Shown here: positions 774 to 34,164 of the stretch, in pieces
Numbering within the stretch: position 1 is the stretch's first letter
How the letters are laid out: every line of letters begins with the position of its first letter
Assembly (NCBI GenBank): GCA_903837595.1
Contig: CAILVI010000103.1
Span: 1-34,717, forward strand
From: an uncultured Thiodictyon sp.
GTDB lineage: Bacteria > Pseudomonadota > Gammaproteobacteria > Chromatiales > Chromatiaceae
Length of the DNA: 34,717 bases
Direction of reading: 5' to 3'
Made by a program: the position numbers and the translations under genes
The notes under the pieces: model-generated
The model's database searches: none
Seen by the model: the letters and a program-made list of their open reading frames with translations, nothing else
What the model was told of the DNA's origin: nothing

Positions 774-874
774 CGCACCCAGATAAGACTTTGATCCGCT
801 AACCATTCTAGGCATGTTTGCGCGAACCTCCACCAGTGTACCTCCAGCCGCAATCAGGATTGAGCGCCACCACA

Positions 875-8866: not shown

Positions 8867-8894
8867 GCCGGCGCGTCGCCCTTGATCGTCGTCG

Positions 8895-9002
8895 CGGCCA
8901 CTGGAGGTCGAGGCTTTAGCCGGTCCGGCGTGCAGACACCACAGACCTCTCTCGGACACGTGAGCAACCGCCACCGGCTAAAGCCTCGACCTCCAGTGGC
9001 CG
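8895..9002. repeat. 30-bp perfect inverted repeat with 48-nt loop (REP-like pair)
   Basis: The arms 8895-8924 and 8973-9002 are exact reverse complements, containing CTGGAGGTCGAGGCTTTAGC and its complement. They lie in the 193-bp gap between the alpha-2-macroglobulin stop and the pbpC start. The gap is transcribed if the two genes form one operon, so the RNA would fold into a very stable long hairpin. There is no T-tract, so it is not a standard terminator. The arm sequence looks like a dispersed extragenic palindrome. Confidence 0.9.
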
Positions 9003-9059
9003 GCGGACCGCCGCCGCCCGGAAGGATCATCAAGGCCGCCGCGTCGGAACTCCATTGTC

Positions 9060-12000: not shown

Positions 12001-15000
12001 GGCCCCACGGCCAATAGCGTCAGGCGGCGCGGGCTGTCTTTTGCGATATAGTCCAGCGGGCCGTCGGCGGACTGGCCGAGCAGGAAGACCTGCTTGGAGA
12101 CCAGGGCGGAGGCGACAGCCACCACCGAACGCCCGGTGCCCTTCTCAAAGCCCTCGCCAGCGAGGGTGATTTCAAAAATCGGCTCGTCAATGGCGATCAG
12201 CGGCAGGTCGAAGCTCGCCACGCCTTGCGCGTCGGTGTTGACCTCGCCCAGTTCTTCGGGTGCCTGCGCAAGCCTGGTTTGCAGGCCGCCCCGGAAGCGG
12301 TAGTCGGGAAATCCCGGTACCTGCCCCGACCAGGGCCGCACGGTCATTTCCAGCTTGGCCGGGTTGCCCGCCGCCGCGGTGCCGAACAGATTGCGCACGG
12401 TGACCTGTGCCTTGGCCCCGTCAGGCGTGATCCAGCCCGTGCCGGGTGCTCCCAGGATCTCGGTCTTGACCTGCAAACGATCCGGCTGGAATTCTTCGAC
12501 CCTCAGCAGGGTGTGGCCCAGGGGCTTCGGCTCGGTTTCCTGCTGGGCGTGCTTCGCCGGGTCGGCAAGCAACAACTCGACGCGATAGGTCCCGGTCTTG
12601 CCGGCGGCGGGACTGGTCCAGGTCAGTTCCTCAAAACCGGCCTCGCCGAAGGCGATCGTCTGCCGCCAGAGCTCTTGGTCTTGCGGGTCGGTGATGACGG
12701 CTTGGAGGGGCAGTCCGGCAGGCAGCGCGGACCAGTCGCGCTTGCGCAGGATCAGGCCGATATGGGCGGTGTCGCCGGGCCGATAGATACCGCGATCCGA
12801 AAACAGGAAGGCGTGCAGTGAGTCTGGTGCGTCGCGCAGCCCGTCGATGTCAAAACGCGACACATCCAGCAACCGCTTGTCCCGTGCATAGGGTAGAAAC
12901 GACAGGTCTCCGTCCTTTTCGGCCAGATAAACCGAGGGTGTCTTTTCATTCTTCAGGCCGGCGACCGAGGGGAAGACGGCCCGACCTTGTGTATCGGTCT
13001 TGGCGGAGGCCAGCGGGATGCCGTTCATACCCAGCAAGGAGACTTGCGCCCCGGCGACCGGCTGGCCGCTGCGCAACGACATCACGAAGAGGTCTTGATG
13101 GCCGTCGGCGGCCGTTTTCACCAGCAAACCCAGATCGGTCAGCAATACCAGGCGCTGGTCTTTGATACCGGCCGAGTCTGCCTGGTCACTGCCATCCCCG
13201 GCGTCGGCCGCTTCATCCGGCGCGGTCGCTGCTGCGCAGTCCGTTTGGGCTGCCTGTCCTGTTTCTTCGGTGACCTCGGGATTGTCCTGCGCGTCGGCCT
13301 CCGGGGCGACGCAAGGCTCGGCCGCGGTTTCCGGCTGCTTCTTTTGCTCCGCCACCGACAACAGGAACAACCCGCGCGGCGGATAGCCTTCCTTCTTCGC
13401 GAAGCGGGCGAAATCGACGGCGAAATACTGTCGCTGCATTTCGTTGCCGGCCGGCAGCGCCTCCTCGTAGGTGAACGTCTCGGCGAAATGCCCGATCGGC
13501 AGTTTGAATGACGGTCGTTGGAAGTCGCCCCGGGTAAACTGGGCCAGGTGATGCATATTGTGCGGCAGCACCCGTTGCAGCACGACCTGTACCCGATCCA
13601 CGCCGCGCACCGCCACGCCCAGCTTCTTGGAACCGCTCAGGCTGAGTAAGGCGCCGTCGTGGAGAATCTTCAACTCTCTTTGGTTGTCTCCCAGGCTGAA
13701 CAGAAAACGGGCGTCTTGCGCCAGTGTGAAGCCGTCCGTGCTCGCGATGCCATGGTTGACCTTGACGAACACCTGGCGTTTTTCCGGTGCCTGAAAAACC
13801 AGGTAATGCAGCCTCTTGTCCTCTTGGTTGGGATCGCGCCAACTCAAGGGGACCGCAGTGGACAGCGCGAGCGTGTCCTCATCCACCTGCTCGGGGCTTT
13901 CCCATTCGCCGATGCCCTTGTCGTCGCACAGCGGCGGACGGGCAAGGTTTTCTTCATGGCAATCGGGCAATAACCAAGCCTCCACGGCCTTGGGCAAGGC
14001 GTGCGGGTCTTGCAATGGCGAGGTGGTTTGCAGGATCAACAGCCGATCGATGTCACCGTCGTTCTTGATGAGGCTCTGGGTATCGGCGGCGCTGAATCTC
14101 AGGAAATCTTGGGCGCTGGGGATGGCCAGGTAGTTGCTGAACGCACTGCCCGAAGGGTTGCCTCCCACGCTGGAAATCAATCCCGGCCCCACACCGATAG
14201 ACACCTCCCCGGGTTCATCCGGGATGGTGATGGGAGCGGTTTTCAAATAGGCGAGCCTGGGATTTTTCTCGTCATAGGACAACTCGAACGGCAGCGAGCG
14301 CACGCGGGGATCGTTGAAAGACTTGGCCGGTTCCACGCGCAGCCGCACCGCGGTGTTGGCCGCGAGGCGGTCTTTCTGCGGGGGATAGCTGAACGTCAAG
14401 GTGGCAGTGACGCGCTTGATCTTGGGATCGGCGGGATCGCTGTATAACTGAAGGTTGGTCACAGACCCGGACATCGGCGGGGTTTGTACTGTCGCGATGA
14501 CCTCGGCTTGCGCGAAGACCAGTCCCGGGAAGGCGGCCGCCGCGACGGCAATCTGGTAATCGGTGCCGGGCTTCAAGGCGGTGGGATCGGTGGGTGTGAA
14601 AATCAGATCCGGGCCCGCCGCCGTATCGCCGTAAACCCAGCGGCCGGCGATGGCGGGGGTGATCGTCACACCGTTCTTCGCCTCTGCGCCCGCCGCTGTC
14701 TTCTTCGCCGATTCCTTCAGATCACGGCCGTCCAAGCGGGCTTGCAGTGTGCCGTCGTGCAATTGCACCCGCAGCCCGGTCACAGTGGGCGGTTTCGCCG
14801 GCTGGTCCTCGATCGTATTCCAGGCGCTGCGCAGCACGGGAAGCCGACAGTCGGCGCCGGTTGCCAGCGTGGCCGCCGCGCCCGCCGTCCAGGTGCCGTT
14901 CTTGTCCCGATCCAGCAGCCGCACCAGGCCGGGGGTGACCTGGAAGCTCAGGGTCATATCCTGGGCTGGGCGCAGCAAGGCGGTGGAATGGATGATGAGG

Positions 15001-15536
15001 TGGGAACCAAACCCGCTGGCCAGGTCGGGCAAGGGGTTGTCGCCGAGTGTGCCGGTGACGGCGGGCCGGTCGACTGGATAGTTGAAATCGACCACGGCCT
15101 CGAACTGCCGGCGCATCGGCGCCTGCAAAATATCCTGCCAGCGGCATTGCCGGCGGACAATCTTCAACGCCGGGGTTTCGTAGCTCAGGGCTGAGCGCTC
15201 GGGGCGATACCCCTCGCGTAGCGCCAGGGCCTGCAACGAAACGGTCAATCGCGTCCCCGGCCGGAAGGTTGTCTCTTTGGGGGTGAAGACCAGGCGCGAG
15301 GGGTCCTGCCAGGTCCATTGGCCCGCCGCCGGGGGCGATAACTGCGGGAGATGGCCGGGTGGCTTGCCCAGTTCATCCAGCGGTGCGACTTCCTGGTCAA
15401 AATTCAGCACCAGCACCGGCGTCCAGGCGCCCTGGTTGAGCAGATAAACCGACGGCGCAACGACGGTTTGTTGACCCCGGCAAGCGGCGAGCATGACCAG
15501 GAACACCAAGAGAAGAACACGCCGGAAGTGACTCAT
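9060..15536 (-). CDS. yfhM: alpha-2-macroglobulin family lipoprotein (YfhM-like, thioester type)
   Basis: This 2158-residue periplasmic protease-trapping protein is thought to shield the cell from foreign proteases. The N-terminus MSHFRRVLLLVFLVMLAAC has a lipobox (LAAC) with the lipidated Cys at residue 19. ATG 15536 is preceded by GAGGAAG at good spacing. The reactive thioester CTEQ is present in YPYGCTEQ at about 1703-1706, the hallmark of the trapping type. A run of MG-like beta domains fills the first 1500 residues. The region around 700-770 is an acidic, low-complexity insert rich in Ala, Asp and Glu. Length exceeds that of the E. coli homologue (about 1650), and the extra sequence is mostly N-terminal. 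It is paired with pbpC downstream, as in many proteobacteria. Confidence 0.95.
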   Translation of the reverse strand: MSHFRRVLLLVFLVMLAACRGQQTVVAPSVYLLNQGAWTPVLVLNFDQEVAPLDELGKPPGHLPQLSPPAAGQWTWQDPSRLVFTPKETTFRPGTRLTVSLQALALREGYRPERSALSYETPALKIVRRQCRWQDILQAPMRRQFEAVVDFNYPVDRPAVTGTLGDNPLPDLASGFGSHLIIHSTALLRPAQDMTLSFQVTPGLVRLLDRDKNGTWTAGAAATLATGADCRLPVLRSAWNTIEDQPAKPPTVTGLRVQLHDGTLQARLDGRDLKESAKKTAAGAEAKNGVTITPAIAGRWVYGDTAAGPDLIFTPTDPTALKPGTDYQIAVAAAAFPGLVFAQAEVIATVQTPPMSGSVTNLQLYSDPADPKIKRVTATLTFSYPPQKDRLAANTAVRLRVEPAKSFNDPRVRSLPFELSYDEKNPRLAYLKTAPITIPDEPGEVSIGVGPGLISSVGGNPSGSAFSNYLAIPSAQDFLRFSAADTQSLIKNDGDIDRLLILQTTSPLQDPHALPKAVEAWLLPDCHEENLARPPLCDDKGIGEWESPEQVDEDTLALSTAVPLSWRDPNQEDKRLHYLVFQAPEKRQVFVKVNHGIASTDGFTLAQDARFLFSLGDNQRELKILHDGALLSLSGSKKLGVAVRGVDRVQVVLQRVLPHNMHHLAQFTRGDFQRPSFKLPIGHFAETFTYEEALPAGNEMQRQYFAVDFARFAKKEGYPPRGLFLLSVAEQKKQPETAAEPCVAPEADAQDNPEVTEETGQAAQTDCAAATAPDEAADAGDGSDQADSAGIKDQRLVLLTDLGLLVKTAADGHQDLFVMSLRSGQPVAGAQVSLLGMNGIPLASAKTDTQGRAVFPSVAGLKNEKTPSVYLAEKDGDLSFLPYARDKRLLDVSRFDIDGLRDAPDSLHAFLFSDRGIYRPGDTAHIGLILRKRDWSALPAGLPLQAVITDPQDQELWRQTIAFGEAGFEELTWTSPAAGKTGTYRVELLLADPAKHAQQETEPKPLGHTLLRVEEFQPDRLQVKTEILGAPGTGWITPDGAKAQVTVRNLFGTAAAGNPAKLEMTVRPWSGQVPGFPDYRFRGGLQTRLAQAPEELGEVNTDAQGVASFDLPLIAIDEPIFEITLAGEGFEKGTGRSVVAVASALVSKQVFLLGQSADGPLDYIAKDSPRRLTLLAVGPDFKPRDTETVTAQVFEQRYLSTLVKREDGLYAYQSVQRDEPRDTLQLVLASGKTDFALPTDNPGRFYVVFKDVHGEELNRVAYSVAGDGNVSRDIERNAELNLTLNKTEYRPGEDIELQIVAPYEGAGLMTIEQDGVIASQWFKTAGTSSTHRITLPSGVSGNGYLSVAFVRSLDSREIYMSPLSAAVVPFAISRQAFVNDIDLNVPETVRPGSNLEVRYTVKDATKVVLYAVDEGILQFAHYRNPAPLDFFFRKRALQTRTHQILDLILPDYALVQQRSSPGGDEDAETFGKYKNPFARKHKPPLAFWSGILDAAPGEHVVSVPVPDYFNGSIRVLAVAVNAGRLAVPVSRSVASNPYVIQPQQPLVVAPGDEFEMGVLVANNSGAAGEQALAVSVTAGEALELRSPNPQTLTLGPGQDGTVRFSARAREQLGPVAVHYQVTGAADATAYSEELSIRPSQPLMTTLQNGVLHITDQQAGKTARLALQRTVYDEQRYAEFSVAMTPVAYLRGMVEYLKNYPYGCTEQLVSQAFPAIVLGSNVELGLSTQDADRLFNRTLQTLQTRLKQDGSFGIWSVGSPTEPFYSMYATHLLLEARERGRKSSDAMFKRAVGYADQYTQQRHYTWHEHQAQAYALYLLARNGQNVADRLRAFEAELARQWGDGGTSANWVRLFLGAAYQIHHLDADADRYFGEFQRQWKRTGLMPWNMQENVQVMSLYLYLLNKHFPGLLDTQDPQFGRYLLELAQDLIKQRGNSFRDSLALLGLGTLWNRFAQDDATSFDIVAGQPLTPLPLHGQTVKRALLERTMNPVQVRGSGMWNLYYQLTERGYDKAPPSVAINQGLTIDRWVLNEQGEPTAELKLQDKLHIRFGLHPDKAMKNIAVVMLIPGGFEIDLSDDGLGSRKSLAIAGKPLWQPEYIDVQEDRVVFFGDLDAGERYFEFRLKPLNSGVYTVPPIMAEGMYDTEILHRGVAGTVRVKE

Positions 15537-19127: not shown

Positions 19128-19745
19128 CTATTGCTTGGACGCCCAGTATTGTTGGCGTTGTTCCGGGGTCAGGCTCCAGATAAACCACGGAGACGCGAAC
19201 TGCACCTTCTCGCTCGTCGCGGAAGGGGCGGTGGCGGTTGGGGCGGGAACGCTCGGCGGGGTTGTCGCTGGAGCAACCACTGCCACGGTTGCCATCGCTG
19301 GCACCGCTGGCACCGCTACCACCGCGGGAGCCGCTTTCACCGTGGGTGCCGTCGCTGCGACGGGCGGGTTGATCATCGCCCCCAGGTCGTTCCACCACCC
19401 TTGCATTTTCGCCGTGTATTGTTGGCGTTGGTCCGGGGTCAGGCCCCATTTCGTCCACAGCTCTTCCGCCTTCAGTTGGATTTCCTCCCAGTATTGTTGG
19501 CGTTGCTCCGGCCGCCAGTTCGCCTGCAACCACTGCTGCATTTGCTCCGTGTATTGCTGGCGTTGCTCTGGGGTCAGGCCCAACCGTGTCCACAGATCGC
19601 TCACCTTCTGTTGCACTTGCTCCTTCGTCCACTGAGGAGAGGTGGCCGCTGGGGCATCCGCTGCCATCGCGGGCGCGCCGGCGAGCAATAGCCCAAGTGA
19701 CAGGGCGGAGGCCGTTAGCGTTAGGCGTTTGGTCGTTGAATACAT
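19128..19745 (-). CDS. exported protein with repeated LTPEQRQQY motifs
   Basis: This 205-residue protein has a clear signal peptide (MYSTTKRLTL, hydrophobic LGLLLAG, cleavage near AMA-AD about residue 28). ATG 19745 is chosen over ATG 19751 because AGAGGT lies 7 nt upstream of the former and only 1 nt from the latter. The motif (L/W)xPEQRQQY or LTPDQRQQY occurs four times (about 57, 77, 102 and 192). The first three copies are spaced by 20-25 residues in a Trp/Gln-rich helical block. An Ala/Pro/Val/Thr linker (about 128-175) separates the last copy. The LTPEQRQ motif recalls the LTxxQ motifs of Spy/CpxP periplasmic chaperones, but the overall architecture differs and I would not assign that function. 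At DNA level the repeats appear as four near-identical GTATTGTTGGCGTTG stretches at 19146, 19417, 19491 and 19551. Confidence 0.85.
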   Translation of the reverse strand: MYSTTKRLTLTASALSLGLLLAGAPAMAADAPAATSPQWTKEQVQQKVSDLWTRLGLTPEQRQQYTEQMQQWLQANWRPEQRQQYWEEIQLKAEELWTKWGLTPDQRQQYTAKMQGWWNDLGAMINPPVAATAPTVKAAPAVVAVPAVPAMATVAVVAPATTPPSVPAPTATAPSATSEKVQFASPWFIWSLTPEQRQQYWASKQ

Positions 19746-19902
19746 CGTCATTACCTCTGAGGTACGGTGTTTCGGGAGACGCAGCATGGCACTCTGAGGC
19801 CCGCGTATCCGTTCGCCGCCGCACGTAAAGCCAAGCCATTACCAGCAAGGCCAGCAGAAGAGGTTTGCCAGGGGGACGCAGACGTACAGGGGATCATTCC
19901 CC

Positions 19903-19974
19903 GTGGGAGCGGCTTCAGCCGCGACGAGTCCACGGTCGCTTGCGAGGTCGCGTCGCGGCTGAAGCCGCTCCCAC
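19903..19974. repeat. REP-like perfect inverted repeat, 23-bp arms
   Basis: The arms 19903-19925 (GTGGGAGCGGCTTCAGCC then GCGAC) and 19952-19974 are exact reverse complements around a 26-nt loop. This GTGGGAGCGGC...GCCGCGAC form is a widespread gammaproteobacterial extragenic palindrome. It sits in the 278-bp gap downstream of the phosphatase-glycohydrolase gene and upstream of the exported repeat protein, so it could protect or terminate that transcript. No T-tract follows. Confidence 0.9.
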
Positions 19975-20023
19975 CGGGTCCCGGTCTGACTATTACGGTA
20001 AGGCCCCGATCTCTCGAGCGGTG

Positions 20024-22210
20024 TCACGCCTGTGTCGGGCGCTCCGCGCCCCAAGTCGCCGGCGACAGGGAGCAGAACCCATTTGCTTCAGGGGCGTCAG
20101 GGTCCATTGGGACCTCGGCCTCGGCTGCCGCGGGGACCGGCGGTGGGGCCAGCAAGCCTGCGCCGGTGCTGGCCCCGGGACCGGTCAAGAGCAGGTAGCG
20201 CGGGTCCGGCTCCTCATACCAATCACCATAGGCGATGGGGAACAGCCCACGGGCGGCCAGACCCAGCACCTCCAGATACCAACCCGCATAGGCCCAGTCC
20301 GTCCCGCGTCCACGGTGGGCAAGCTCCGGGAAGCGGGCTAGGAACAGGTCTGCTAGTCCCCTGGGTCCTTTGCCCTGCGCATCCCGCCAGTCGAACGGGC
20401 GTGGCCCATTGCCAGTGGTGTGATGGGCCGCCTGCTCGAACTCCCGCAGCAAAGCGCCGTTGGTCGCCAGAAAGTTATCGCTCGGGGCGACTGCAACCCG
20501 CCAGCAACAACCCGATGGGGCCAGCCCCGGGGCGATCCGCAGGCGCTGGTAGCCGCGGCGATGCAGCAGATGCACCATCTCCAGGATATCCAGGCAGGTC
20601 TGGACCTCCGGCGGGGGCAGCGTGACGGCACGCATCACGCTGGTCGGTGCGGCGCGATGGCCCTGTTGGGCCAGTTGGCCAACGCCGTGCAGACACTCCG
20701 CCAGCACGTCCAGGCGCCGGACCCAGGCCATGGGTAGGGCGTCCACGCCCTTCCAGGCGCCCCAGATCTGACCGGCAATCGAGCCAGTGGAGTCGCTGTC
20801 ACCATCGTGATTGGTAGCACGCTGGATCGCGTCCTCAAAGCTGTCGGCGGTGAGTACGGCATAGGTGGCTACCGCCAGGGCCTCCTCGCCCACCCAACCC
20901 TGGCCGATCTCGGCGAGCGCTCGGGTGGGGTCCGAACGCAGCCGTTTGGCCCGGGTTTGGGCACGCGTCACAACGGCAAGGAGCTCGGCGTTCACTTGGT
21001 GCTTGCTCAGCGCCTGCGCCGTGACCGCCTTGGCCTGCTCCAGCGCGTGTGAAAAACTGTGCCCTTCGAACAAGGCGCCGATCAGGACCGCCAGCATTCC
21101 GGCGCTAGCCCAACCGTCCGGATGGCCATGGGTCAGGGCGCCCGCCCGTGCGCCTAGGTGGAAGGTCGTGTATGGGGCCGACCTCCGGAACCAGCCAAGC
21201 GGGGCGACCCGCATAACGGCCCCGCAGCCCTTGGACTGGTTGATAGGACGGACTGGACTTCCCCACGCACCGTTCTGCAACGCGGAAAGACAGGTATTGC
21301 CGGGGGCCCGGCGATGACGCAGGGCGGTACGCTTGGCGAGGGTCCCCTGCACCAAGTAACCGGGCCGCTGAGCACCCTGGGTCTGGAGCCAATCGGCATA
21401 GGCATGGCGTAGGTTGTCGACCAGTTGCTCGTCCGACCCATTGCGGGAGGTGCGAGTCATGGCCTCCAGGGTGAAGAGGGTCATCTGCGTGTCGTCACTG
21501 ACACGCAGGTACCCGTCCTGGTAGGCCGGGGTCCGCAGACCAGCGGCGCCGAAGCGCTGGCGAATCGTCTTCAGGCTATCGAACTCCACCGCATAGCCGA
21601 AACCGTCGCCGAGCGCCCCGCCCAGCAGGCAGCCCAGAGCGCGATCGACAAGAGCCTCGTCCAGAACGGGCACGGTTGTAGCCAGGACATGAGCCTTCTG
21701 CGCGGCGGTCTCGATGGTCCCGGGCCGTGCGGTGCGCACAGCCGCGATGGCCTCGGTCGGTGGCATGCCCAACTCAACCAATAGACGGGCGGCGACGGTG
21801 CCAGTGCGGCCCAGACCGCCGCGGCAGTGGAGTAGTACCTTTCCCCCTCCGCGCAGCAGGCGGCGCAGGCGCAGACCGTAAAGGACCCAGCGGTTCTCGA
21901 AGCGTTGCCCGGGTGGCTGCACATCCCGGACCGGCAGGTGATACCAGTCGAGCCCGAGGACCTCCACGGCCTCACCGATGTGAGGCACCTCTACCCGCTG
22001 GAGCTCCTCCGGCTCCATCAGGGTCACGACGGCCGTCGCCCCCCAGTCGGCGATGACCTTGAGATCTTTCGCCAGGTCGCGGAACCAGTGTCCGGTGTGC
22101 GAATCCGCCTGTTTCTTGCCGGGACAGAAGGTCATACCGATCACTCCGCCGCCGGGGGTCGCGACGGCGTCGATCCGCAGGGGATGGGTCTCACTGGTGA
22201 GATGTGTCAC
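20024..22210 (-). CDS. dual-specificity phosphatase fused to ADP-ribosylglycohydrolase
   Basis: This 728-residue protein starts at GTG 22210, with AGGAGAG 7 nt upstream. The reading frame extends further upstream but there runs through the preceding gene in another frame. Residues 20-180 are a cysteine phosphatase: GMTFCPGKK at 25-33, a likely general-acid Asp in LPVRDVQPP (D96), and the P-loop HCRGGLGRTG with C129 and R135. From residue 190 an ADP-ribosylglycohydrolase (DraG/ARH) domain begins: RALGCLLGGALGDGFG, the metal site SDDTQM (238-243), GYLVQGT, KGCGAVMRVAP, GALTHGHPDG, and the second metal site HDGDSDSTGSIAGQ near 466-480. The C-terminal 200 residues are extra and unassigned. The expected reactions are removal of phosphate and of ADP-ribose, possibly from one substrate such as a phosphorylated ADP-ribosyl adduct. 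The substrate is unknown. It lies downstream of the MerR-receiver regulator. Confidence 0.9.
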   Translation of the reverse strand: MTHLTSETHPLRIDAVATPGGGVIGMTFCPGKKQADSHTGHWFRDLAKDLKVIADWGATAVVTLMEPEELQRVEVPHIGEAVEVLGLDWYHLPVRDVQPPGQRFENRWVLYGLRLRRLLRGGGKVLLHCRGGLGRTGTVAARLLVELGMPPTEAIAAVRTARPGTIETAAQKAHVLATTVPVLDEALVDRALGCLLGGALGDGFGYAVEFDSLKTIRQRFGAAGLRTPAYQDGYLRVSDDTQMTLFTLEAMTRTSRNGSDEQLVDNLRHAYADWLQTQGAQRPGYLVQGTLAKRTALRHRRAPGNTCLSALQNGAWGSPVRPINQSKGCGAVMRVAPLGWFRRSAPYTTFHLGARAGALTHGHPDGWASAGMLAVLIGALFEGHSFSHALEQAKAVTAQALSKHQVNAELLAVVTRAQTRAKRLRSDPTRALAEIGQGWVGEEALAVATYAVLTADSFEDAIQRATNHDGDSDSTGSIAGQIWGAWKGVDALPMAWVRRLDVLAECLHGVGQLAQQGHRAAPTSVMRAVTLPPPEVQTCLDILEMVHLLHRRGYQRLRIAPGLAPSGCCWRVAVAPSDNFLATNGALLREFEQAAHHTTGNGPRPFDWRDAQGKGPRGLADLFLARFPELAHRGRGTDWAYAGWYLEVLGLAARGLFPIAYGDWYEEPDPRYLLLTGPGASTGAGLLAPPPVPAAAEAEVPMDPDAPEANGFCSLSPATWGAERPTQA

Positions 22211-22256
22211 GGGTCGGCTCTCCTGCCGGCGGTTGTTTCGCTTATGGGTAGCGTAA

Positions 22257-22276
22257 CTGACAGCTTTCACTGTCAG
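22257..22276. promoter_or_regulatory. palindromic operator candidate CTGACAG-N6-CTGTCAG
   Basis: A perfect 7-bp inverted repeat with 6-bp centre lies 47-66 bp upstream of the GTG start of the phosphatase-glycohydrolase gene. The same TGACAG/CTGTCA half-site recurs in the control region of the adjacent regulator (23088-23093, 23146-23151, and a variant CTGTTAGCGACAG near 23118-23130). There is no T-tract, so a terminator is less likely than a protein-binding site. Binding by the neighbouring MerR-type protein is inference. Confidence 0.55.
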
Positions 22277-22332
22277 AGAGTGAGCGGCTGCCCGGTGAAG
22301 TCCTTGAGGGCCTTGCCCTGGCGGATGCGCAC

Positions 22333-23064
22333 TCAGATCCCGATCTTTTCCAGCCAGTCGCGCAGGTCGTCCGGACCCTCGGTGACATAGTTGGCACCTG
22401 CTTCTGTGGCCAGTTCGCGGACCTGAGCGGCCTTCTTCCTGGTGTAGATGACCATGGGCACGTCGGAGCCCCGGTCGCGAATTTTGCGGGCAAGCTCCAT
22501 GCCGGCGCGCTTGTTCAGCACCTCGCCCTCCGCCCGGGCCAGGTCCGAAATGACCACATGGACCCGTACGCGATCCAGCAGGGCCAGGGCATGGGCGGTC
22601 GAGTAGGCTCGCAGCACCGGGGCACCACGGGCGGCCAGCCATTCGTAGAGGCGCAGATCCGCCTGCGGGTCGTCGTTGACGGCCAGGACCAGGCGGCGGG
22701 TCTCGGGGAACGCCTGGCTCATGACCGTGCGGATCAAGCCAGTGGCACTAGGCTGCGGGTTGTCGATCAGATCGAGCAGGGCCTGCTCGTCCGCGCTGCG
22801 GATCAAGTCGGCGATCTTCTCCAGCGGCCAGTGGTCTCGTGCCAGTTCGCGTACCACTATCAGCTCCAAGAGTTGGCGGTAGCCGAAGCCACCGGTTTCC
22901 CCCGACTCCCGCTCCGGGGGGCTCAGGACACGCTTCTGGACGTAGAAGCGCACCAGACGTTCGTTGAGCTTGGGCTCGTCGAGGCCGAGGGACAGGAAGT
23001 GGGCGGCGGCCTTCTCTGCGAGCTCCGCACCGGTTCCGCGCCAATTCGTGTTGAAGATGGACAT
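22333..23064 (-). CDS. MerR-type HTH regulator fused to a receiver-like domain
   Basis: This 243-residue protein is placed at ATG 23064. An in-frame ATG at 23106 is possible but would lie within the best -10 element (TATGAT, minus strand 23107-23102). The N-terminal part (about 15-95) is MerR-like: LNERLVRFYVQKRVLSPPERE, then GGFGYRQLLELIVVRELARDHWPLEKIADLI. The C-terminal part (about 123-243) has the receiver fold order: RLVLAVNDDPQ (acid pocket), VVISDLAR with D174 at the phosphoacceptor position, MVIYTRK, then GANYVTEGPDDLRDWL. The conserved receiver Lys-Pro is replaced, so it may be a pseudo-receiver. No histidine kinase is nearby. It probably controls the downstream phosphatase-glycohydrolase gene, 122 bp away on the same strand. 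Confidence 0.85.
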   Translation of the reverse strand: MSIFNTNWRGTGAELAEKAAAHFLSLGLDEPKLNERLVRFYVQKRVLSPPERESGETGGFGYRQLLELIVVRELARDHWPLEKIADLIRSADEQALLDLIDNPQPSATGLIRTVMSQAFPETRRLVLAVNDDPQADLRLYEWLAARGAPVLRAYSTAHALALLDRVRVHVVISDLARAEGEVLNKRAGMELARKIRDRGSDVPMVIYTRKKAAQVRELATEAGANYVTEGPDDLRDWLEKIGI

Positions 23065-23307
23065 GGGATGTGACGCTTCGATATCAGTGACAGCTGACCG
23101 AATCATAGCATCTTTTACTGTTAGCGACAGCGATTGATGTCATCTTGACAGGCCAATGTCCGATCGACCGTCGCGACGTCGCCCGGGGGGGCTCGTCAAT
23201 AGCCGTCGCGACCTGACGCAAGAGGTCGTAGGCGGGCTGGCACGGTTGACATCGCCCCCGGTGCGGCCCAGATTCCCGCGTCACTCTCCTACACTGGACC
23301 CCGCCCG
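23065..23307. promoter_or_regulatory. divergent control region between the MerR-receiver gene and tldD-like gene
   Basis: On the minus strand a perfect-looking -10 TATGAT is at 23107-23102. CTGTCG lies 17 nt upstream in place of a -35, and this overlaps the inverted repeat CTGT-TAGCG-ACAG, as expected for a MerR-type operator between promoter elements. On the plus strand a consensus TTGACA at 23246-23251 precedes CAGATT at 17-nt spacing, a plausible promoter for the tldD-like gene. Several TGACAG half-sites occur. Confidence 0.4.
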
Positions 23308-24750: not shown

Positions 24751-26066
24751 ATCAGGATGCCTTCTACGGACTCGCCGCGCGGCTCTTCGAACAACTCACC
24801 GGCGATGAGCATCTGTTCTGTAGCCTGGGGGGCGAGTCATCCGACTTCGTGCGACTCAATCACAACCGTATCCGGCAGGCCGGCGCGGTGCGCGCCGCCG
24901 CGCTGGGGCTCAACCTGATCGACGGTGAACGCCAGGCGGAGGCGTCCTGCGATCTCAGCGGCGACCCGGAGGCCGACCTGGCCCGCGCCCGGCAGCTGCT
25001 CGGCAGGTTGCGCGAGCGCATCGTCCATGTGCCGGAGGACCCCTATCTCAACTATTGCCTGGAGGCATCCACCAGCGAGCGGCTGGTGGGTGAGGACCCG
25101 CCGGACGCGCGCGCCGCGGTGTCCGAGCTCATCAGCGCCGCCACCGGCCTGGATCTCGTCGGCATCTGGGCGAGCGGTGAGATCGCCGAGGGCCTGGCCA
25201 GCTCCATCGGCCACCGTCATTGGCACCGTAGCCGCAGCTTCAACCTGGACTTCAGTGGCTATCTGGAGGCGGACAAGGCGGTGAAGGCAAGTTATAGCGG
25301 GCTCAATTGGGAGTCTGCCGTCCTGGCGCGCAAACTCGATGAGTTGCGCCAGGGACTGGAGGTGATGGCGCGGCCCGCGCGGGTCATCGCACCGGGTTCT
25401 TATCGGGCCTATCTGGCCCCGTCCGCGGTGGCTGAGTTGATGAATATGCTGGCCTGGGGCGGGTTCGATCTGAAGAGTCACCGTACCCGTCAGACCCCCT
25501 TGCTCAAGCTGGTCCTGGGCGAGCGCGTATTCGACCCGCGGGTGACCATCCGCGAGGAGCAGGACCGGGGGCTGGCCGCCGGTTTCACCGGCGATGGCTT
25601 CATCAAGCCGGATCGGGTCACGCTGATCGAGGCTGGGCGTTTCGGCCGCTGCCTGGTCGATGCCCGGGACGCCAAGGAATACGGTGAGCCGGTGAATGCC
25701 GCGGGTGGGTCGCCGGAGTCGGTGGGGCTCGATCCGGGCGAGTTGCCGGCGGCCGAGGTCCTGGCCCGGCTCGACACCGGCTTGTGGATCGGCAACCTCT
25801 GGTACTGCAACTGGTCGGACCCCAACGACTGCCGCGTCACCGGCATGACCCGCTTTGGCACCTGGTGGGTGGAGCAAGGGGTGATTGCCGCCCCGGTCAA
25901 GGTCATGCGCTTCGATGACAGCCTTTACTACCTGCTCGGCGACCGCCTGGAGGGCTTGACCTACGAGCGGGAACTGCTGATGGACGCTGGGACCTATGAG
26001 GGGCGCAGCACCGAGAGTGCACTCTTGCCGGGGGTGTTGGTGTCGGGGATCGAATTGGCGTTATGA
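24747..26066 (+). CDS. TldE/PmbA-like metalloprotease partner
   Basis: This 439-residue partner subunit follows the TldD-like gene with an ATGA overlap. It lacks the HExxxH motif, as expected of the non-catalytic TldE half. The family landmarks are DFVRLNHNRIRQAG near the start, RVIAPGSYRAYLAPSAVAEL in the middle, and the C-terminal CRVTGMTRFGTWWVEQGVI...MRFDDS. In TldD/TldE systems the two subunits form a hollow heterodimer that threads unstructured peptides to the zinc site; I infer the same here. The sequence is divergent from housekeeping PmbA, so this may be an extra copy rather than the core pair. Confidence 0.88.
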   Translation: MNQDAFYGLAARLFEQLTGDEHLFCSLGGESSDFVRLNHNRIRQAGAVRAAALGLNLIDGERQAEASCDLSGDPEADLARARQLLGRLRERIVHVPEDPYLNYCLEASTSERLVGEDPPDARAAVSELISAATGLDLVGIWASGEIAEGLASSIGHRHWHRSRSFNLDFSGYLEADKAVKASYSGLNWESAVLARKLDELRQGLEVMARPARVIAPGSYRAYLAPSAVAELMNMLAWGGFDLKSHRTRQTPLLKLVLGERVFDPRVTIREEQDRGLAAGFTGDGFIKPDRVTLIEAGRFGRCLVDARDAKEYGEPVNAAGGSPESVGLDPGELPAAEVLARLDTGLWIGNLWYCNWSDPNDCRVTGMTRFGTWWVEQGVIAAPVKVMRFDDSLYYLLGDRLEGLTYERELLMDAGTYEGRSTESALLPGVLVSGIELAL

Positions 26067-26163
26067 TCCGCCCGGGCCAGCCGTCAACGCGACGGCCGGC
26101 CGCGACCGTCTCGGCGAGTGTGAATGCGAGACAGCACGACATCAGGGTCATAAGGAGGTTCGC

Positions 26164-28611
26164 GTGTCCCCGTATCGCATCATGCTCGCCGCCGTCCCGG
26201 TACTCGTGTTGGGTGCCCAGTCAGGCTTCGGGTCAGGCCTCGGGTCAGGCTTCGGATTAGGTTTTGGGTCTGGCTTCAGGTCGAGCGTCGCGTCGAGTCA
26301 GTTTCCGGAGCTCGACGGCGACTTCGCCGGGGTCTGTCAAACCGCGTATGAGCGCTCGCATGAGCGCAATGTGGAGGCGGTACCGCCGCCCTTGCCGGAG
26401 TTCGATCCACCCATCTCGGGGGCCAAGGAGGGGTCCGGTCTGGTCTACGAGGAATACAATAAGATCCAGACCAACGGGTGGCTCTACCACGACAGCGTCC
26501 TGTGGGTGACGCCCCGGCCGCGCGGCAACGTCCACAAGCTGCCGCTCGATGTGTGGTATGCCCCCGACCTGGGGCGCAAGTACCTGCACTGGGAGTATCA
26601 CGAGTCCGACTACAAATATTGGGTCTCGGGCGTTACCCCCCCCTTGCCGCGGACGATTCCGGCCGCGGCGCGGATCATCGCAGGTCTGGAGTTCGGCGCG
26701 GCCTTCGGTCGGTCCGGCAGTTGGCCCCAGATCGGCTATCTGGGACCCAGTGCCTATGTGCGGTTGACGGGGCTCGATACCGTGTTCGGGAGCAGCCTGC
26801 GTTTGACCGGTTACAACATCGGGTTCGTCGAGTCCAAGCCGCGTGTCACCCAGGTCTATGTCCGGGCGCTCCCCTATGCCCGGTTGGCGCTGCTGGGGGT
26901 GATCGAGAACGCCCCCTATACCGCCTGTTTTCAGATGGTCGTGACCCCGGATCTCAGCACCCGTGCCCAGACGACGCTGCGCTTCTATCCCCGCACGCGG
27001 TACCAGGGGTCGCCGCACGCCATGGTCGCTCCGCTCGCCATCAGCAGCATGTTCTGGAAGGATGAGATGCATGCCACGGACATCGGCACCGACGAGGCCC
27101 ACGATGCCGATCACCTGGCCGTCTGCGGCCAGCCCTCGGTCCCGCTCCGGGACGTCGTCCCCGACACCCTGCTGCGCCGGCACCCGAACTTTCGCGAGGT
27201 CGGCCCTGCCGCCTGTTTCGGGCTGGTGCAACTGGATCGCAATCCCGCTCACTATAAGAGGTACGTCGCGGCCAATTATGCCCGGCGCGTGAGCTTCTGG
27301 GTCGACGACGTGCAATCGGACCTGCCCTACGCCATCAAGCTCATGGCCTACGGGACCAACTACGAGGGGGAGGACAACGTCGTTGCCTATGCCGAGTTCC
27401 AGCGCGACCTGCCGGTCCCCCGCTCGGCCGCGGACGGCGCCACCTTCCGCTATACCCTGACCGCCTCGGACCTGCCGCCGCCGCAGCCGGGTCCGCGGGT
27501 CGTGGTGGGCGAGACCGGCCCGGGCGACCGGGTCGGGCAGGCGCTCGCCATGAGCGGGGAGACCCTGGCGGTGGGTGCGCCGGCCATCAAGGGTCGGCCG
27601 GGCTCGGTGTATCTGTTCAAGCGCACGCCGTTCGGGTTGATCGCGCAGCGGCAACTCACCCCGCACGACGGCGTGGCCGGCGACCAGTTCGGGATGGCCC
27701 TGGCCATGGAGGGCGATCGGCTGGTGGTGGCGGCGCGCGGCGCTGTCTATGTCTTCGTGCGGCGCGGGCTGGATTGGGCGGAGCAGGCCAGGCTCTCGGT
27801 ACCCAACGGCGATAGCGTCTCGCCCCTTGGGTATGCGGTGGCCACGGCGGGCGACCGGATCGCGGTCGGGGTCCCGGGTGATGACGGCGGCGCGGGTGGG
27901 CCCATGACCGACTATGGCATCGTCTATGTGTTCCGGCGCGAAGGAGAGACCTGGCCCCGGGAGGAGATCCTGCGGGCGGCCGACCGGGAGGCCTGGGACC
28001 ATTTCGGCGCCGCGCTCGCGCTCGACGGTAACCGGCTGGCTATCGGCGCCCCGGGCGACGATTATCCCAACGCCTGGGAGCAAGGGTCGGTCTACCTGTT
28101 CGAGCGGACCGCGACCGGCTGGGCGCAGACGGCGAAGCTCACCGAGCCGGGCGGTTGGCAGGACTACGGGGCCGCGCTCGCCCTGTCCGGCAATCGACTC
28201 CTGGTGGGACAGCCCCGCGCCCGTGAGGACGGCGGGCGCACCGCCACGGGCGCCGTCTGTGCCTACACACTGCCGCCTCAAGGTGGTCCGCGGTCCCCGC
28301 GTGAGTGTTTCCGCCCGCTCGACGGGCGCCAGGGGGACGCGTTCGGTGCCGCCGTCAGCCTCAGGGGTAGCACCGCGGTCATTGGTGCCCCCGGGGCGCT
28401 GGCGGGCCATGGAGTCGCCTGGGTCTACCGCAACGCCAAGGGGAGTTGGCAGCGGGGTGCCAGGCTCACCGGCGTGGCGGGGGCCGCGGAGCAGTTCGGG
28501 ACCGCGGTCGCGACCGACGGCGCCTCCTGGTCCATCGGTGCACCGCCGGTCGCCGGTCAGACCCGCACCGCGCGGGGTGCGGCCTATCTGTTCCCGGCGC
28601 TCGCTCGTTAG
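26164..28611 (+). CDS. exported OpgG/MdoG-like domain fused to FG-GAP beta-propeller repeats
   Basis: This 815-residue protein starts at GTG 26164, with AAGGAGG 5 nt upstream. A signal peptide (MLAAVPVLVLGAQS) is followed by a Gly/Ser/Phe low-complexity run (about 20-38). Residues about 45-420 resemble OpgG, which helps make or branch osmoregulated periplasmic glucans: VYEEYNKIQTN, YLGPSAYVRLTG, RLALLGVIENAPYTACFQM, APLAISSMFWKDE...DEAHDADHLAV, and CFGLVQLDRN are in the family's order. From about 450 to the end, six or so FG-GAP-like units follow (DRVGQALAMSGETLAVGAP, DQFGMALAMEGDRLVVAA, DHFGAALALDGNRLAIGAPGDD and others), expected to form a beta-propeller. The fusion suggests a glucan-active or glucan-binding surface protein. 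The OpgG match is motif-level recognition. Confidence 0.8.
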   Translation: MSPYRIMLAAVPVLVLGAQSGFGSGLGSGFGLGFGSGFRSSVASSQFPELDGDFAGVCQTAYERSHERNVEAVPPPLPEFDPPISGAKEGSGLVYEEYNKIQTNGWLYHDSVLWVTPRPRGNVHKLPLDVWYAPDLGRKYLHWEYHESDYKYWVSGVTPPLPRTIPAAARIIAGLEFGAAFGRSGSWPQIGYLGPSAYVRLTGLDTVFGSSLRLTGYNIGFVESKPRVTQVYVRALPYARLALLGVIENAPYTACFQMVVTPDLSTRAQTTLRFYPRTRYQGSPHAMVAPLAISSMFWKDEMHATDIGTDEAHDADHLAVCGQPSVPLRDVVPDTLLRRHPNFREVGPAACFGLVQLDRNPAHYKRYVAANYARRVSFWVDDVQSDLPYAIKLMAYGTNYEGEDNVVAYAEFQRDLPVPRSAADGATFRYTLTASDLPPPQPGPRVVVGETGPGDRVGQALAMSGETLAVGAPAIKGRPGSVYLFKRTPFGLIAQRQLTPHDGVAGDQFGMALAMEGDRLVVAARGAVYVFVRRGLDWAEQARLSVPNGDSVSPLGYAVATAGDRIAVGVPGDDGGAGGPMTDYGIVYVFRREGETWPREEILRAADREAWDHFGAALALDGNRLAIGAPGDDYPNAWEQGSVYLFERTATGWAQTAKLTEPGGWQDYGAALALSGNRLLVGQPRAREDGGRTATGAVCAYTLPPQGGPRSPRECFRPLDGRQGDAFGAAVSLRGSTAVIGAPGALAGHGVAWVYRNAKGSWQRGARLTGVAGAAEQFGTAVATDGASWSIGAPPVAGQTRTARGAAYLFPALAR
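26218..26283 (+). repeat. degenerate 12-nt tandem repeat encoding Gly-Ser-Gly-Phe units
   Basis: About five imperfect copies of a GGCTTCGGGTCA-like unit encode SGFGSGLGSGFGLGFGSGF just after the signal peptide of the OpgG-like protein. The unit is in frame, so copy-number change would alter linker length without a frameshift. Confidence 0.7.
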
Positions 28612-29516: not shown

Positions 29517-32500
29517 TTACCGCAGACCTTTACGCCAGCCGCCCGAAGGCAGGCATGCAATGCAGAAGAACCTGAACTCGACGATGCACGATTGGGTCAT
29601 CGCCCCAGTGGTCCAAGTGTTCCCCTGCCAACCACCAGTCGGGCAAGTACCCTCTACTCCATGGGGGATGTAGCCGCTGTCGGCGGTGATGACGAACGAC
29701 TTTGTTCCCCCGGGACTGACCGATTGCGGGGTATCGGGACTGACGCTCCCGCCCGCCCCAGCAACCGGTGTGACGGTCAGCGCGTTCCCGGTGCCGATGT
29801 CGTTGCAGCCCATGAACCAGCCCGAGTTGCTCGGCAATGTGGTCACCGGACAGCCGCAGTGCCCTTGGCCGTCATGGCCGAATTGCCAGCCGTCCCAGGA
29901 TACCAGCACCTTGCCCGCAGTCGTGCTGGAGCCGCAAATGACCGTGCCCCGAGTGCCGGCAGAGATGCCGCTGGAACCCGCTGGGTTGTCGACCAGGGCG
30001 ACGACCTGTTGGCCGACGGAGTAGCGACTGTCGCATTGGCAGGCGATCGGCTCGCTCGGACCGGTGTCGGAGAAGATGGCTGTCACGCTCTTGTCGGTGT
30101 TCATGACGACCGTGCATCCACCCAACCCGGAACAGGCGCCGCCCCAGCTACCGAAGGTCGAGCCCACCCCGGTTGTTGCGCGTAATGTGACCGAGGTCCC
30201 GGAGCTGAGGTTCATGTTGCAGGCAGTCCCACAGTCGATACCGGCCGGGTCGCTCGCGATCTGACCCGTCCCCGCGCCCAGACGCACGACGGTTAGTGTG
30301 TAGGAGCTGCCGCTGCCCGAGCTATACACGACCTGATCCAGCCAGCCCGCGTCGTTGCCTTGGCTGACACTGTAGTCTTTGGTGTAGGCCCACTTCAGGG
30401 TGTGCGACCCAGCCGCGATTCCCCAGCTCTGCGAATCCCAAGCGGTTTCCCCAGTGATATTGCTCTGCTCCACCCCGTCGATGTAGAACCGCAGATAGTC
30501 CCAGCCGCCCTCGGACGAGACCTTCCAATAGTAAGACAAGGTTCCGGGGCCGCTGACGGTCGTTTGCAGCCAGGTGGTCTGATTGTCCGAGATGCCGCCG
30601 CCTTGAGCCGCATCGGTCCCATCGTGCGAAATGACATGCTCCCCCAACCACGAGGCGTTGCCACCGGTCGTCCAATTCAGCCCGGGGGCGTCCACTGCAT
30701 CGGCCAGTGAAACCGGGGTGTCGGAGACAAGAGTGACTTGGTCGACCCAGCCGGCATCGCTGCCGCTGCTGACGCTTTCGTCTTTGGTGTAGGCCCACCT
30801 GCTCGTGTGGTTGCCGGCCGGAATGGTCCAGACCTTTTGCTGCCAATCGACAGCGCCGCTGATGCTGCCCGTCTGCTCGACCCCGTCGATGTAGAATCTC
30901 AGATAGTCGTAAGTGGACTCGGACGAGACCTTCCAGTAGAACGAGAGAGTCGTCGGTCCGGTAACGGCCGTCTCCATCCAAGTGCTTTGCGAGTCCCCGA
31001 CATCGCCGCTCTGTGCAGCGTCGGTCCCGTCGTGCGAGACGGGTGTTTGCCCGTACCACTGCGCGTCACCCCCGGCGACGAGGGTCAAAGAGGTGTTGTC
31101 GAGCGCCTCTTGCAGGCTCGCCGACCCAGCGGGACTGACCTCGCCGCACTCCGCATACCAGCCCGAATGGTCCGGTAACCCGCCGGTCGGACAACTGCAA
31201 TACCCGTTGCCGGTGTGGCCGGACTGCCAGTTATCCCAGGAGATCAACAAGGGCGGCGACCCCGATGCGCCGCAGACGACCGTACCGTGGTCGCCCGCCG
31301 AGATACCGCTGGCCCCGCTGGGGCTATTCACGAGCGCGACCACCCGGTCGCCCACCGAATAATGGCCAGAGCATTGGCAATCGACCGGAATGCTGCCCCC
31401 TCCGGAGAAGGTCGCAGTGACGCTCCGGGACGCGCTCATGCTCAGGGTGCAGGTGCCGGTGCCCGTGCACGCGCCGCTCCAGCCACCGAACTGAGAGCCC
31501 GGAGACGCTTGGGCAGTGAGTGTCACGGAGGTACCCGCAGAGTAGTCTTGCGTGCAATCGTTGCCGCAGTCGATGCCGGCGGGAGCGCTCGCGACGGTGC
31601 CTGAGCCGCTACCGGCCTTGCTGACGGTCAAGGTATATTGCAGGCTGGTGCCGAAGACGACCTGATCGACCCAGCCGGCATCCGAGCCCAGGCTGACGCT
31701 GCCATCCTTGGTATAGGCCCACTTGAGCGTATGGTTGCCGGAGGCTATGTTCTGGACCACTTGCCGCCAGTCTACCTCGCCGCTGATGCTCCCGGTCTGC
31801 TCGACGCCGTCGATGTAGAACCTCAGGTAGTCGAAACTGGATTCGGACGAAACCTTCCAGTAGAAGGACAGGGCGCTCGGTCCGGTGACCGATGTCTGCA
31901 TCCAGGTCGTGCCCGAGTCCGAAATGTTGCCGCTCTGCGCCGCGTCCGAGCCGTCGTGGGAAACGCTGGTCTGCCGAGCCCAGGATCCATCGCCTCCCGT
32001 GGTCCAGCTCAGGCTTGTGTTGTCGACCGCATCGGCGAGCGATCCGCTCGGTACGCCGTTGAATGTTGCGGTGACGCTGTGGTCGGCGCTCATGGCGAGC
32101 GTGCAGGCGCCGGTGCCCGAGCAGGCCCCGCTCCAGCCGGCGAAGGTGGAGCCGCCACTCGCCGCGGCGCTGAGTGTCACGGAGGTCGTTGCGTTGTAGC
32201 TCTCGACACAATCGCTGCCGCAGTCGATGCCGACGGGAGCGGACGAGACCGATCCCGATCCGGTGCCAGCGAGGGTCACGTTCAGGAGGTGCGCGTCGCC
32301 GACCGGCGCCACGTCGATCCAGGCTGCGCCTTGGCCGACCCGGGAGTTGGCTCCGGTCTGGTCGTAACGGATGCGCATGTACCCATGCTCGCCCCAATTG
32401 GTACCCCAACTGTTGCGCAATATCCAGCTCTGGGTGCTGTCATCCCACCCGACCAGCACAATCTCGTGGTTAACGCCGCCGCCGCATACGTTCCCGGAAC

Positions 32501-33716: not shown

Positions 33717-34164
33717 GGCGACCCTCTCGGATTCACGAGCCAACGCGTTCTTGGCACACATCGCAGACCAAGTTCGTAACGCAGGACAATAGTGTATCGA
33801 ATATCCGTCGCCGGGTACGGCGCCAGACCCGGGCGCGCCAGCGACCACCGGTGCCGGGAAACGCTTGCCTGGCCATCGTCGCACGCGCGCCTACCGCCCC
33901 TGAGATCCTCTCGGCACCCGCCAGGACGTCCCGTTGCCACCCCTGGTCAGCGCAAACCCACCCGGCAACGGCCAACGCCAGCGCCCACCGGCGCCACCCG
34001 ATGTCAGCCGGCAACAGGGTTATGCTTCAGGGCTGCGCACAAGTCCAACAGCACAAGCCCAAAGGCTTGCGTCTAGCCCGTCTGCCGTGGTAGCCTTCCG
34101 CTTCTTTTTCGGGCACCCAGGTGTTGCCGGTCCCGGCCATTTTTTTTCTTTTAGGATCTCTGCC
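33717..34164. promoter_or_regulatory. 448-bp divergent region upstream of the protease and rpmB
   Basis: No credible gene. On the plus strand, TTGCGT at 34067-34072 and TAGCCT at 34091-34096 have 18-bp spacing and form a weak candidate rpmB promoter. The -35 overlaps the palindrome CAAGCC-CAAA-GGCTTG at 34054-34069. A T-rich tract (34139-34152) after GCCGGTCCCGGC lies just ahead of the rpmB ribosome site and could be a leader attenuator or a terminator remnant. Confidence 0.35.

What the first reader, a model, noticed from the sequence alone, without database searches (positions are those of the whole stretch)
20024..23107. Candidate undescribed ADP-ribose/phosphate signalling module: MerR-receiver regulator plus phosphatase-ADP-ribosylglycohydrolase fusion
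One protein carries an intact Cys phosphatase P-loop (HCRGGLGRTG) and both metal sites of an ADP-ribosylglycohydrolase. Next to it is a MerR HTH fused to a receiver-like domain with no kinase nearby. Coupling two hydrolases suggests one substrate bearing both phosphate and ADP-ribose, such as a product of NAD-dependent modification or RNA repair. The regulator could sense a nucleotide rather than a phosphoryl signal. Domain assignments rest on motifs; the system-level idea is inference.
Basis: partly seen in the sequence, partly recalled or inferred. Interest (0 to 1): 0.8.

Follow-up and report, generated by a model that had tools for sequence, protein, structure and literature searches.

The report
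Regulated ADP-ribose eraser, defence-linked
A bacterial gene pair encodes a protein with two intact-looking active sites, one for removing phosphates and one for removing ADP-ribose tags, next to its own DNA-binding switch; some relatives sit beside DNA-cutting immunity genes, so it looks like a new version of an already predicted but untested anti-virus repair system.

Summary
Beside it is a MerR-like HTH fused to a receiver domain that keeps DD, D and T but has Glu for the conserved Lys: a pseudo-receiver. In 146 family genomes the regulator adjoins 4 of 6 listed fusions, those four forming one supported clade (95/93); TGACAGT-type sites lie before both genes. The fusion is not undescribed: PMC9503650 predicted ARG/rhodanese-phosphatase conflict systems with Nudix or WYL regulators, nucleases and helicases. 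In 33 loci examined here, 4 carry a Nudix regulator, 6 an adjacent WYL regulator (2 more elsewhere in the locus), 4 the MerR/pseudo-receiver, 17 none of these. New: a third regulator class in that slot, a C-terminal domain without Pfam family that recurs beside restriction genes, and McrB/McrC directly downstream in two close relatives. KptA, DarT and NADAR were not found in the genome, which weakens the RNA-repair idea. Best reading: an inducible eraser of foreign ADP-ribosylation; substrate and inducer unknown. No structure could be predicted.

The parts
20024..22210 (-). fusion gene, GTG start, 728 aa, stop at 20024-20026
   Evidence: ORF and translation; start set by homologues in A1
21671..22210 (-). 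phosphatase domain (DSP/PTP, residues 1-180)
   Evidence: Pfam PTP-SAK 3.1e-13, CDKN3 5.7e-5; PDB ShufPTP 9e9l 2.1e-13
21806..21826 (-). CX5R catalytic loop, C129 to R135
   Evidence: Cys and Arg kept in 27 of 28 fusions
20696..21670 (-). ADP-ribosylglycohydrolase domain (residues 181-505)
   Evidence: Pfam ADP_ribosyl_GH 5.8e-66; DraG 2woc/2woe and ARH structures matched; metal-site residues kept in 28 of 28
20171..20695 (-). C-terminal domain (about residues 506-680), no Pfam family
   Evidence: separate gene in L054, L150, L151, L152
22333..23064 (-). regulator gene, 243 aa from this start (alternative start 23106, 257 aa)
22735..23064 (-). MerR-like HTH region
   Evidence: 19.3 bits here, 25.6 bits in L030 orthologue against cut-off 21.6
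22336..22710 (-). pseudo-receiver domain: D131 D132, D174, T208, E229 in place of Lys
   Evidence: PF00072 37.4 bits; alignment to two ordinary receivers; numbering
22258..22275 (.). inverted repeat TGACAG-N6-CTGTCA, between regulator and fusion
   Evidence: only match in the window, 0.02 expected in shuffles with up to one mismatch (pattern chosen after seeing it)
23115..23131 (-). operator-like site upstream of the regulator
   Evidence: best-scoring place in the window for a matrix built from L030, L031 and L033 alone (15.54; next best 14.38 at 19985-20001)
23088..23093 (+). further TGACAG half-site near the regulator start
23146..23151 (+). further TGACAG half-site upstream of the regulator
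19899..19978 (.). 36-nt-arm inverted repeat just after the fusion gene (REP-like by eye)
   Evidence: 89% complementary arms

Best explanation
An inducible eraser of foreign ADP-ribosylation, a member of the predicted ARG/rhodanese-phosphatase conflict systems with a new kind of switch. Shown: two conserved active sites in one chain; a linked MerR/pseudo-receiver regulator inherited with the fusion in one clade; shared operator-like sites; nuclease, helicase or McrB/McrC genes beside several relatives. Inferred: the regulator dimer binds the TGACAGT-type repeats before both genes and holds expression low; infection or intoxication relieves this through the pseudo-receiver (by a small molecule or partner, not by ordinary Asp phosphotransfer); the ARG domain takes ADP-ribose off host proteins or nucleic-acid ends that a foreign transferase has modified; the phosphatase domain removes a phosphate that the same reaction leaves exposed, or trims the released product; the C-terminal domain and, in relatives, McrB/McrC link this to attack on foreign DNA.
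For: Active sites. Linkage: 4 of 6 listed PTP-ARG fusions in 146 family genomes; the four form a clade (95/93) and WYL-linked fusions another (100/100). Operator-like sites. Same slot taken by Nudix (4) or WYL (6 adjacent) regulators in 33 loci, which PMC9503650 section 3.8 proposes to be ADP-ribose-sensing repressors. Defence context: McrB-like AAA and McrC in L030 and L031; PD-(D/E)XK and UvrD genes in L023 and L025, homologues in L059, L062, L064, L067; EH_Signature and SNF2 genes in L054; separate C-terminal domain inside restriction or DUF1156/DUF499 gene runs on plasmids. Patchy: 1 of 6 genomes of the own genus sample has the fusion. An ARH-like bacterial enzyme removes ADP-ribose from RNA phosphate ends in vitro, leaving a phosphate (PMC11833690, section 18 read).
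Against: No biochemical or phage test exists for this family as far as these searches show. The window copy itself has no nuclease or defence gene directly beside it; the type I-G CRISPR-Cas lies about 14 kb away. PADLOC has no model hitting fusion or regulator. 17 of 33 loci carry none of the three regulator types (several are short contigs). The second-best matrix site in the window scores close to the best and lies outside the promoters; no sigma-70-like promoter was found. Repression versus activation is not shown. L061 and L063 neighbours are not defence-like where scanned or listed.
Confidence: 0.5

Rival explanations
1. Double eraser of protein marks: the phosphatase reverses phosphorylation by a foreign protein kinase and the ARG reverses ADP-ribosylation by a foreign transferase, on separate or the same host proteins.
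For: The phosphatase is closest to protein/DSP phosphatases (CDKN3, ShufPTP). Stand-alone relatives (51-58% identical) stand beside a conserved ~250-aa gene in 7 of 12 loci, so the phosphatase also works without an ARG.
Against: That ~250-aa gene has no Pfam hit (two members scanned) and no PDB hit below E=0.6; calling it kinase-like is by eye only. DSP-type enzymes also act on RNA ends and lipids (recalled).
Confidence: 0.2
2. One reading: one soluble or RNA substrate carrying both phosphate and ADP-ribose, such as a KptA product, sensed by the regulator.
For: Two hydrolases in one chain; pseudo-receiver without Lys; cRec receivers are predicted cyclic-phosphate hydrolases (PMC9503650 section 3.4.5).
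Against: No KptA, DarT or NADAR match in this genome. The receiver is not cREC by Pfam (no PF20274 hit; the genome search rang in no control, so says nothing). PMC9503650 argues that ARG prefers macromolecular adducts.
Confidence: 0.12
3. Endogenous regulation like DraG: the fusion reverses a host transferase's mark in metabolism, unrelated to conflict.
For: The ARG domain resembles DraG (TIGR02662 75.5 bits, below its 337 cut-off; 2woc/2woe). One stand-alone phosphatase relative lies near draG/draT in Rhodobacter sp. CZR27.
Against: No transferase beside any of the fusions annotated here (only selected neighbours scanned); patchy distribution; restriction and helicase neighbours.
Confidence: 0.13
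4. Regulator and fusion are neighbours by chance or by lineage inheritance without function.
For: All four linked cases are in one family; beyond it the regulator was not found (1, the own genome, of 369 class genomes; 1, own, of 398 phylum genomes).
Against: Kept in three genera and in two arrangements: same operon in L030 and L031, divergent and split into two ORFs in L033; operator-like sites kept.
Confidence: 0.05

Closest known systems
ARG-centric conflict systems with rhodanese-phosphatase partner (PMC9503650, section 3.8)
   Same: ARG fused or adjacent to a rhodanese-phosphatase-superfamily phosphatase, no transferase in the locus, own one-component regulator, variable REase/helicase neighbours, ARPP in one relative (L112, PF20208 3.6e-100)
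   Different: Regulator is MerR plus pseudo-receiver, not Nudix or WYL; extra C-terminal domain without Pfam family; McrB/McrC in close relatives
DraG / ARH ADP-ribosylhydrolases
   Same: Same domain and metal-site motifs
   Different: Fused to a phosphatase; far below the DraG and Tri1 equivalog cut-offs
PTP-SAK / CDKN3-type DSP phosphatases
   Same: Intact CX5R loop and general acid
   Different: Fused to ARG
Pseudo-receiver proteins / atypical response regulators (PMC12632262, passages seen)
   Same: Receiver fold match lacking one of the five active-site residues (Lys to Glu)
   Different: MerR-type HTH; the word MerR does not occur in that paper's text
cRec domains (PMC9503650 3.4.5; PMC7824862 passages)
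   Same: Divergent receiver in an ADP-ribose context
   Different: No PF20274 hit
McrBC type IV restriction
   Same: McrB-like AAA plus McrC directly downstream in L030 and L031
   Different: Absent from the window; four McrC-family matches lie on other contigs of the genome

Membership tests
ARG/rhodanese-phosphatase conflict system | ARG domain with metal-site residues | tested here: met
ARG/rhodanese-phosphatase conflict system | phosphatase of the rhodanese-phosphatase superfamily in the same chain or next gene | tested here: met
ARG/rhodanese-phosphatase conflict system | no transferase gene in the locus | tested here: met
   none among 16 distinct window proteins scanned with Pfam; small ORFs not scanned
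ARG/rhodanese-phosphatase conflict system | Nudix or WYL one-component regulator (over 42% of systems in the paper, so not required) | tested here: not met
   MerR plus receiver instead
ARG/rhodanese-phosphatase conflict system | variable nuclease/helicase/chaperone partners | tested here: inconclusive
   none adjoining in the window; McrB/McrC in L030, L031
ARG/rhodanese-phosphatase conflict system | protection against viral ADP-ribosylation | not testable with these tools
   prediction only, also in the paper
DraG / Tri1 equivalogs | score above the NCBIfam cut-off | tested here: not met
   75.5 of 337.05 and 66.7 of 490 bits
ordinary response regulator | all five receiver active-site residues (DD, D, T, K) | tested here: not met
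   Glu at the Lys position, in window, L030 and L031, and Glu also in L033
MerR regulators | MerR_1 match above cut-off | tested here: inconclusive
   19.3 bits window, 21.1 L033 (below 21.6), 25.6 L030 (above)
cREC | PF20274 match | tested here: not met
   no hit for P0002, L030 or L033 receiver at E up to 10; without working control
KptA-type RNA repair | KptA in the genome | tested here: not met
   control rang in 3 genomes
known PADLOC defence system | model match for fusion or regulator | tested here: not met
   fusion; regulator

The most novel reading that the evidence does not exclude
The MerR/pseudo-receiver is a new class of ADP-ribose-derived-nucleotide sensor, and the fusion is a two-step end-repair enzyme: the ARG domain strips ADP-ribose from a phosphorylated RNA or DNA end and the phosphatase domain then removes the exposed phosphate, with McrB/McrC in sister systems cutting the DNA of the attacker.
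Probability: 0.12. Interest if true: 0.78.

Novelty: new variant of a known kind. Interest (0 to 1): 0.45.

Why it matters
Bacterial systems that undo ADP-ribosylation by phages have been predicted but, in the papers seen here, not tested. This compact two-gene version, with operator-like sites that can be checked by binding assay and both active sites in one soluble chain, makes the prediction testable: what the ARG and phosphatase act on, and what a MerR/pseudo-receiver senses without a histidine kinase. The unnamed C-terminal domain, seen as a separate gene inside restriction gene runs, is a further lead.

Tried and rejected
KptA/RNA-repair link: no KptA, DarT or NADAR match in the own genome; relatives were not searched for them. 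cREC: no Pfam hit; one search had no ringing control and proves nothing. Phage origin: no place covering 80% of the fusion in phage or plasmid records; the regulator gave no match in plasmids or viral contigs. Of 80 viral-contig loci three matched from the phosphatase part (L159, L160, L161); L160 shares its neighbour gene with the Pseudescherichia chromosome (L051), so is probably host DNA beside a prophage. E. coli: no match to the L051 fusion in 5,426 genomes. A kinase identity for the ~250-aa neighbour of stand-alone phosphatases was looked for and not supported. The receiver-only match in G081 lies beside transposase-like genes by eye, not an ARG. C-terminal domain: no Pfam family, no PDB sequence match below E=0.3. 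Structure prediction gave nothing (below), so no fold search was made. Two papers that I recalled (rhodanese-phosphatase superfamily; RNA repair systems) are not held.
Full report
What is there. On the minus strand, a regulator (22333-23064, or from 23106) is followed after 122 bases by a 728-aa fusion (20024-22210). The fusion holds a DSP-type phosphatase (residues 1-180), an ADP-ribosylglycohydrolase (ARG, 181-505) and a C-terminal domain (about 506-680). The catalytic Cys/Arg loop is kept in 27 of 28 fused homologues, the general acid in 26, the ARG metal-site and TH residues in 28 (partly selected for by the search pattern). The regulator has a MerR-like HTH (below cut-off here, above it in L030) and a receiver domain above cut-off. 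Aligned to two ordinary receivers from L072, the receiver keeps D131/D132, D174 and T208, has extra residues after D174 and Glu229 where Lys is expected; window, L030, L031 and L033 agree. By the definition in PMC12632262 (passages seen) this is a pseudo-receiver.

Linkage. In 146 family genomes the listed matches that span phosphatase and ARG number six (G000, G038, G082, G098, G124, G137; G010 has a phosphatase match with an ARG piece holding a stop beside it). The regulator was found in G000, G098, G137 and, as two neighbouring ORFs on the opposite strand, G038, in each case next to the fusion; a fifth genome, G081, has only a receiver-like gene (36% identity) without ARG nearby. The regulator was not found in other class genomes (1, the own, of 369), its HTH not in other phylum genomes (1, own, of 398). 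In the tree of 28 fusions the four regulator-linked ones form a clade (95/93), WYL-linked ones a clade of seven labelled rows against the other groups (100/100), the Nudix-linked ones are unresolved. In the own genus 1 of 6 sampled genomes has the fusion.

Other regulators and neighbours. I examined 33 loci with ARG (32 with a phosphatase match at 1e-6): MerR and receiver in 4 (window, L030, L031, L033); a homologue of the L054 Nudix protein in 4 (L053, L054, L058, L060; Pfam NUDIX tested in L054 only); an adjacent WYL protein in 6 (L023, L025, L059, L062, L064, L161) and a WYL protein elsewhere in the locus in 2 (L067, L112); none of these in 17, several of them short contigs. McrB-like AAA and McrC follow the fusion in L030 and L031; nuclease and UvrD genes occur in L023 and L025 with homologues in L059, L062, L064 and L067; EH_Signature and SNF2 genes in L054 and an SNF2 gene in L072; ARPP-1 in L112. 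Not defence-like: glycosidases in L061, a PQQ enzyme in L065, a dehydrogenase and a ShlB-type transporter in L058, CpeT and a metallophosphatase in L055, transport and rnk genes in L024.

Operator-like sites. L030, L031 and L033 share CTGWCAATGACAGT in front of the regulator. A matrix from these three ranks 23115-23131, in front of the window regulator, first among all positions of both strands of the window (15.54), though 19985-20001 follows at 14.38. Between regulator and fusion lies TGACAG-N6-CTGTCA, the only such repeat in the window (0.02 expected); this pattern and that were chosen after seeing the site. In L030 and L031, where the fusion follows the regulator closely, no site was seen between them. 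No sigma-70-like promoter was found.

C-terminal domain. It is fused in the window, L030, L051 and L160, a separate gene in L054, and a broken remnant in L033. Three plasmid records carry it as a separate gene: within a type I restriction gene run (L150), after a WGR gene and before an MmeI-like gene (L151), and in a WYL, DUF3883, DUF1156, DUF499 run (L152). In 398 phylum genomes five matched: own; G613, whose contig has the length of the L054 contig; G630, next to a gene without Pfam hit; and two weak matches in genes with no defence neighbour seen. Ten members share invariant H26, G29, R47, D114 and W120 (alignment numbering of the window row). No phage record matched.

Literature. PMC9503650 section 3.8 (read in full) describes ARG-centred systems, over 42% with Nudix or WYL regulators and a little over 55% with a coupled phosphatase, with REases, helicases and ARPP, and proposes that they undo viral ADP-ribosylation. 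The string MerR there occurs only in an author name. PMC11833690 (abstract, passages and section 18) shows that the ARH-like SCO5809 removes ADP-ribose from RNA phosphate ends. Searches for MerR with a receiver domain listed no such ADP-ribose-linked regulator by title and abstract start; only passages of two of those papers were read, so absence from print is not shown.

Reading. The fusion belongs with the ARG/rhodanese-phosphatase systems; the MerR/pseudo-receiver takes the place of the Nudix or WYL regulator. That the system is induced, what induces it, and what it erases are inference. The lack of KptA, DarT and NADAR matches fits a foreign rather than a resident transferase but other transferase families were not searched. 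The defence reading rests on relatives: the window copy has no nuclease beside it, and McrC-family genes of this genome lie on other contigs.

Noticed in passing
window 18-792 and 875-6358: CRISPR array (11 repeat copies, spacing 71-74) and type I-G (I-U) cas genes: Cas7g, Cas56g, Cas3g, Cas8g by PADLOC models.
   Followed up: partly
window 29520-33884 (-): One chain holds a chagasin-family protease inhibitor domain (I42) and a papain-family protease (C1), plus InlB-type repeats.
   Followed up: no
window 25996-28608 (+): MdoG domain with five FG-GAP_2 stretches in one ORF; its start overlaps the upstream gene, so the start is uncertain.
   Followed up: no
window 6560-15536 (-): Bacterial alpha-2-macroglobulin (2158 aa) next to a penicillin-binding protein with BiPBP_C.
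   Followed up: no
L035, L036, L037, L038, L039, L040, L041: Stand-alone relatives of the phosphatase domain stand beside a conserved ~250-aa protein without Pfam hit, 7 of 12 loci compared.
   Followed up: partly
L031 6852-8948 (-) and L030 6014-8656 (-): The L030 and L031 fusions end in another shared C-terminal region absent from the window; in L031 it replaces the C-terminal domain.
   Followed up: no
window 19131-19787 (-): Small protein with several copies of a motif around LGLTPEQRQQY (by eye), no Pfam hit.
   Followed up: no
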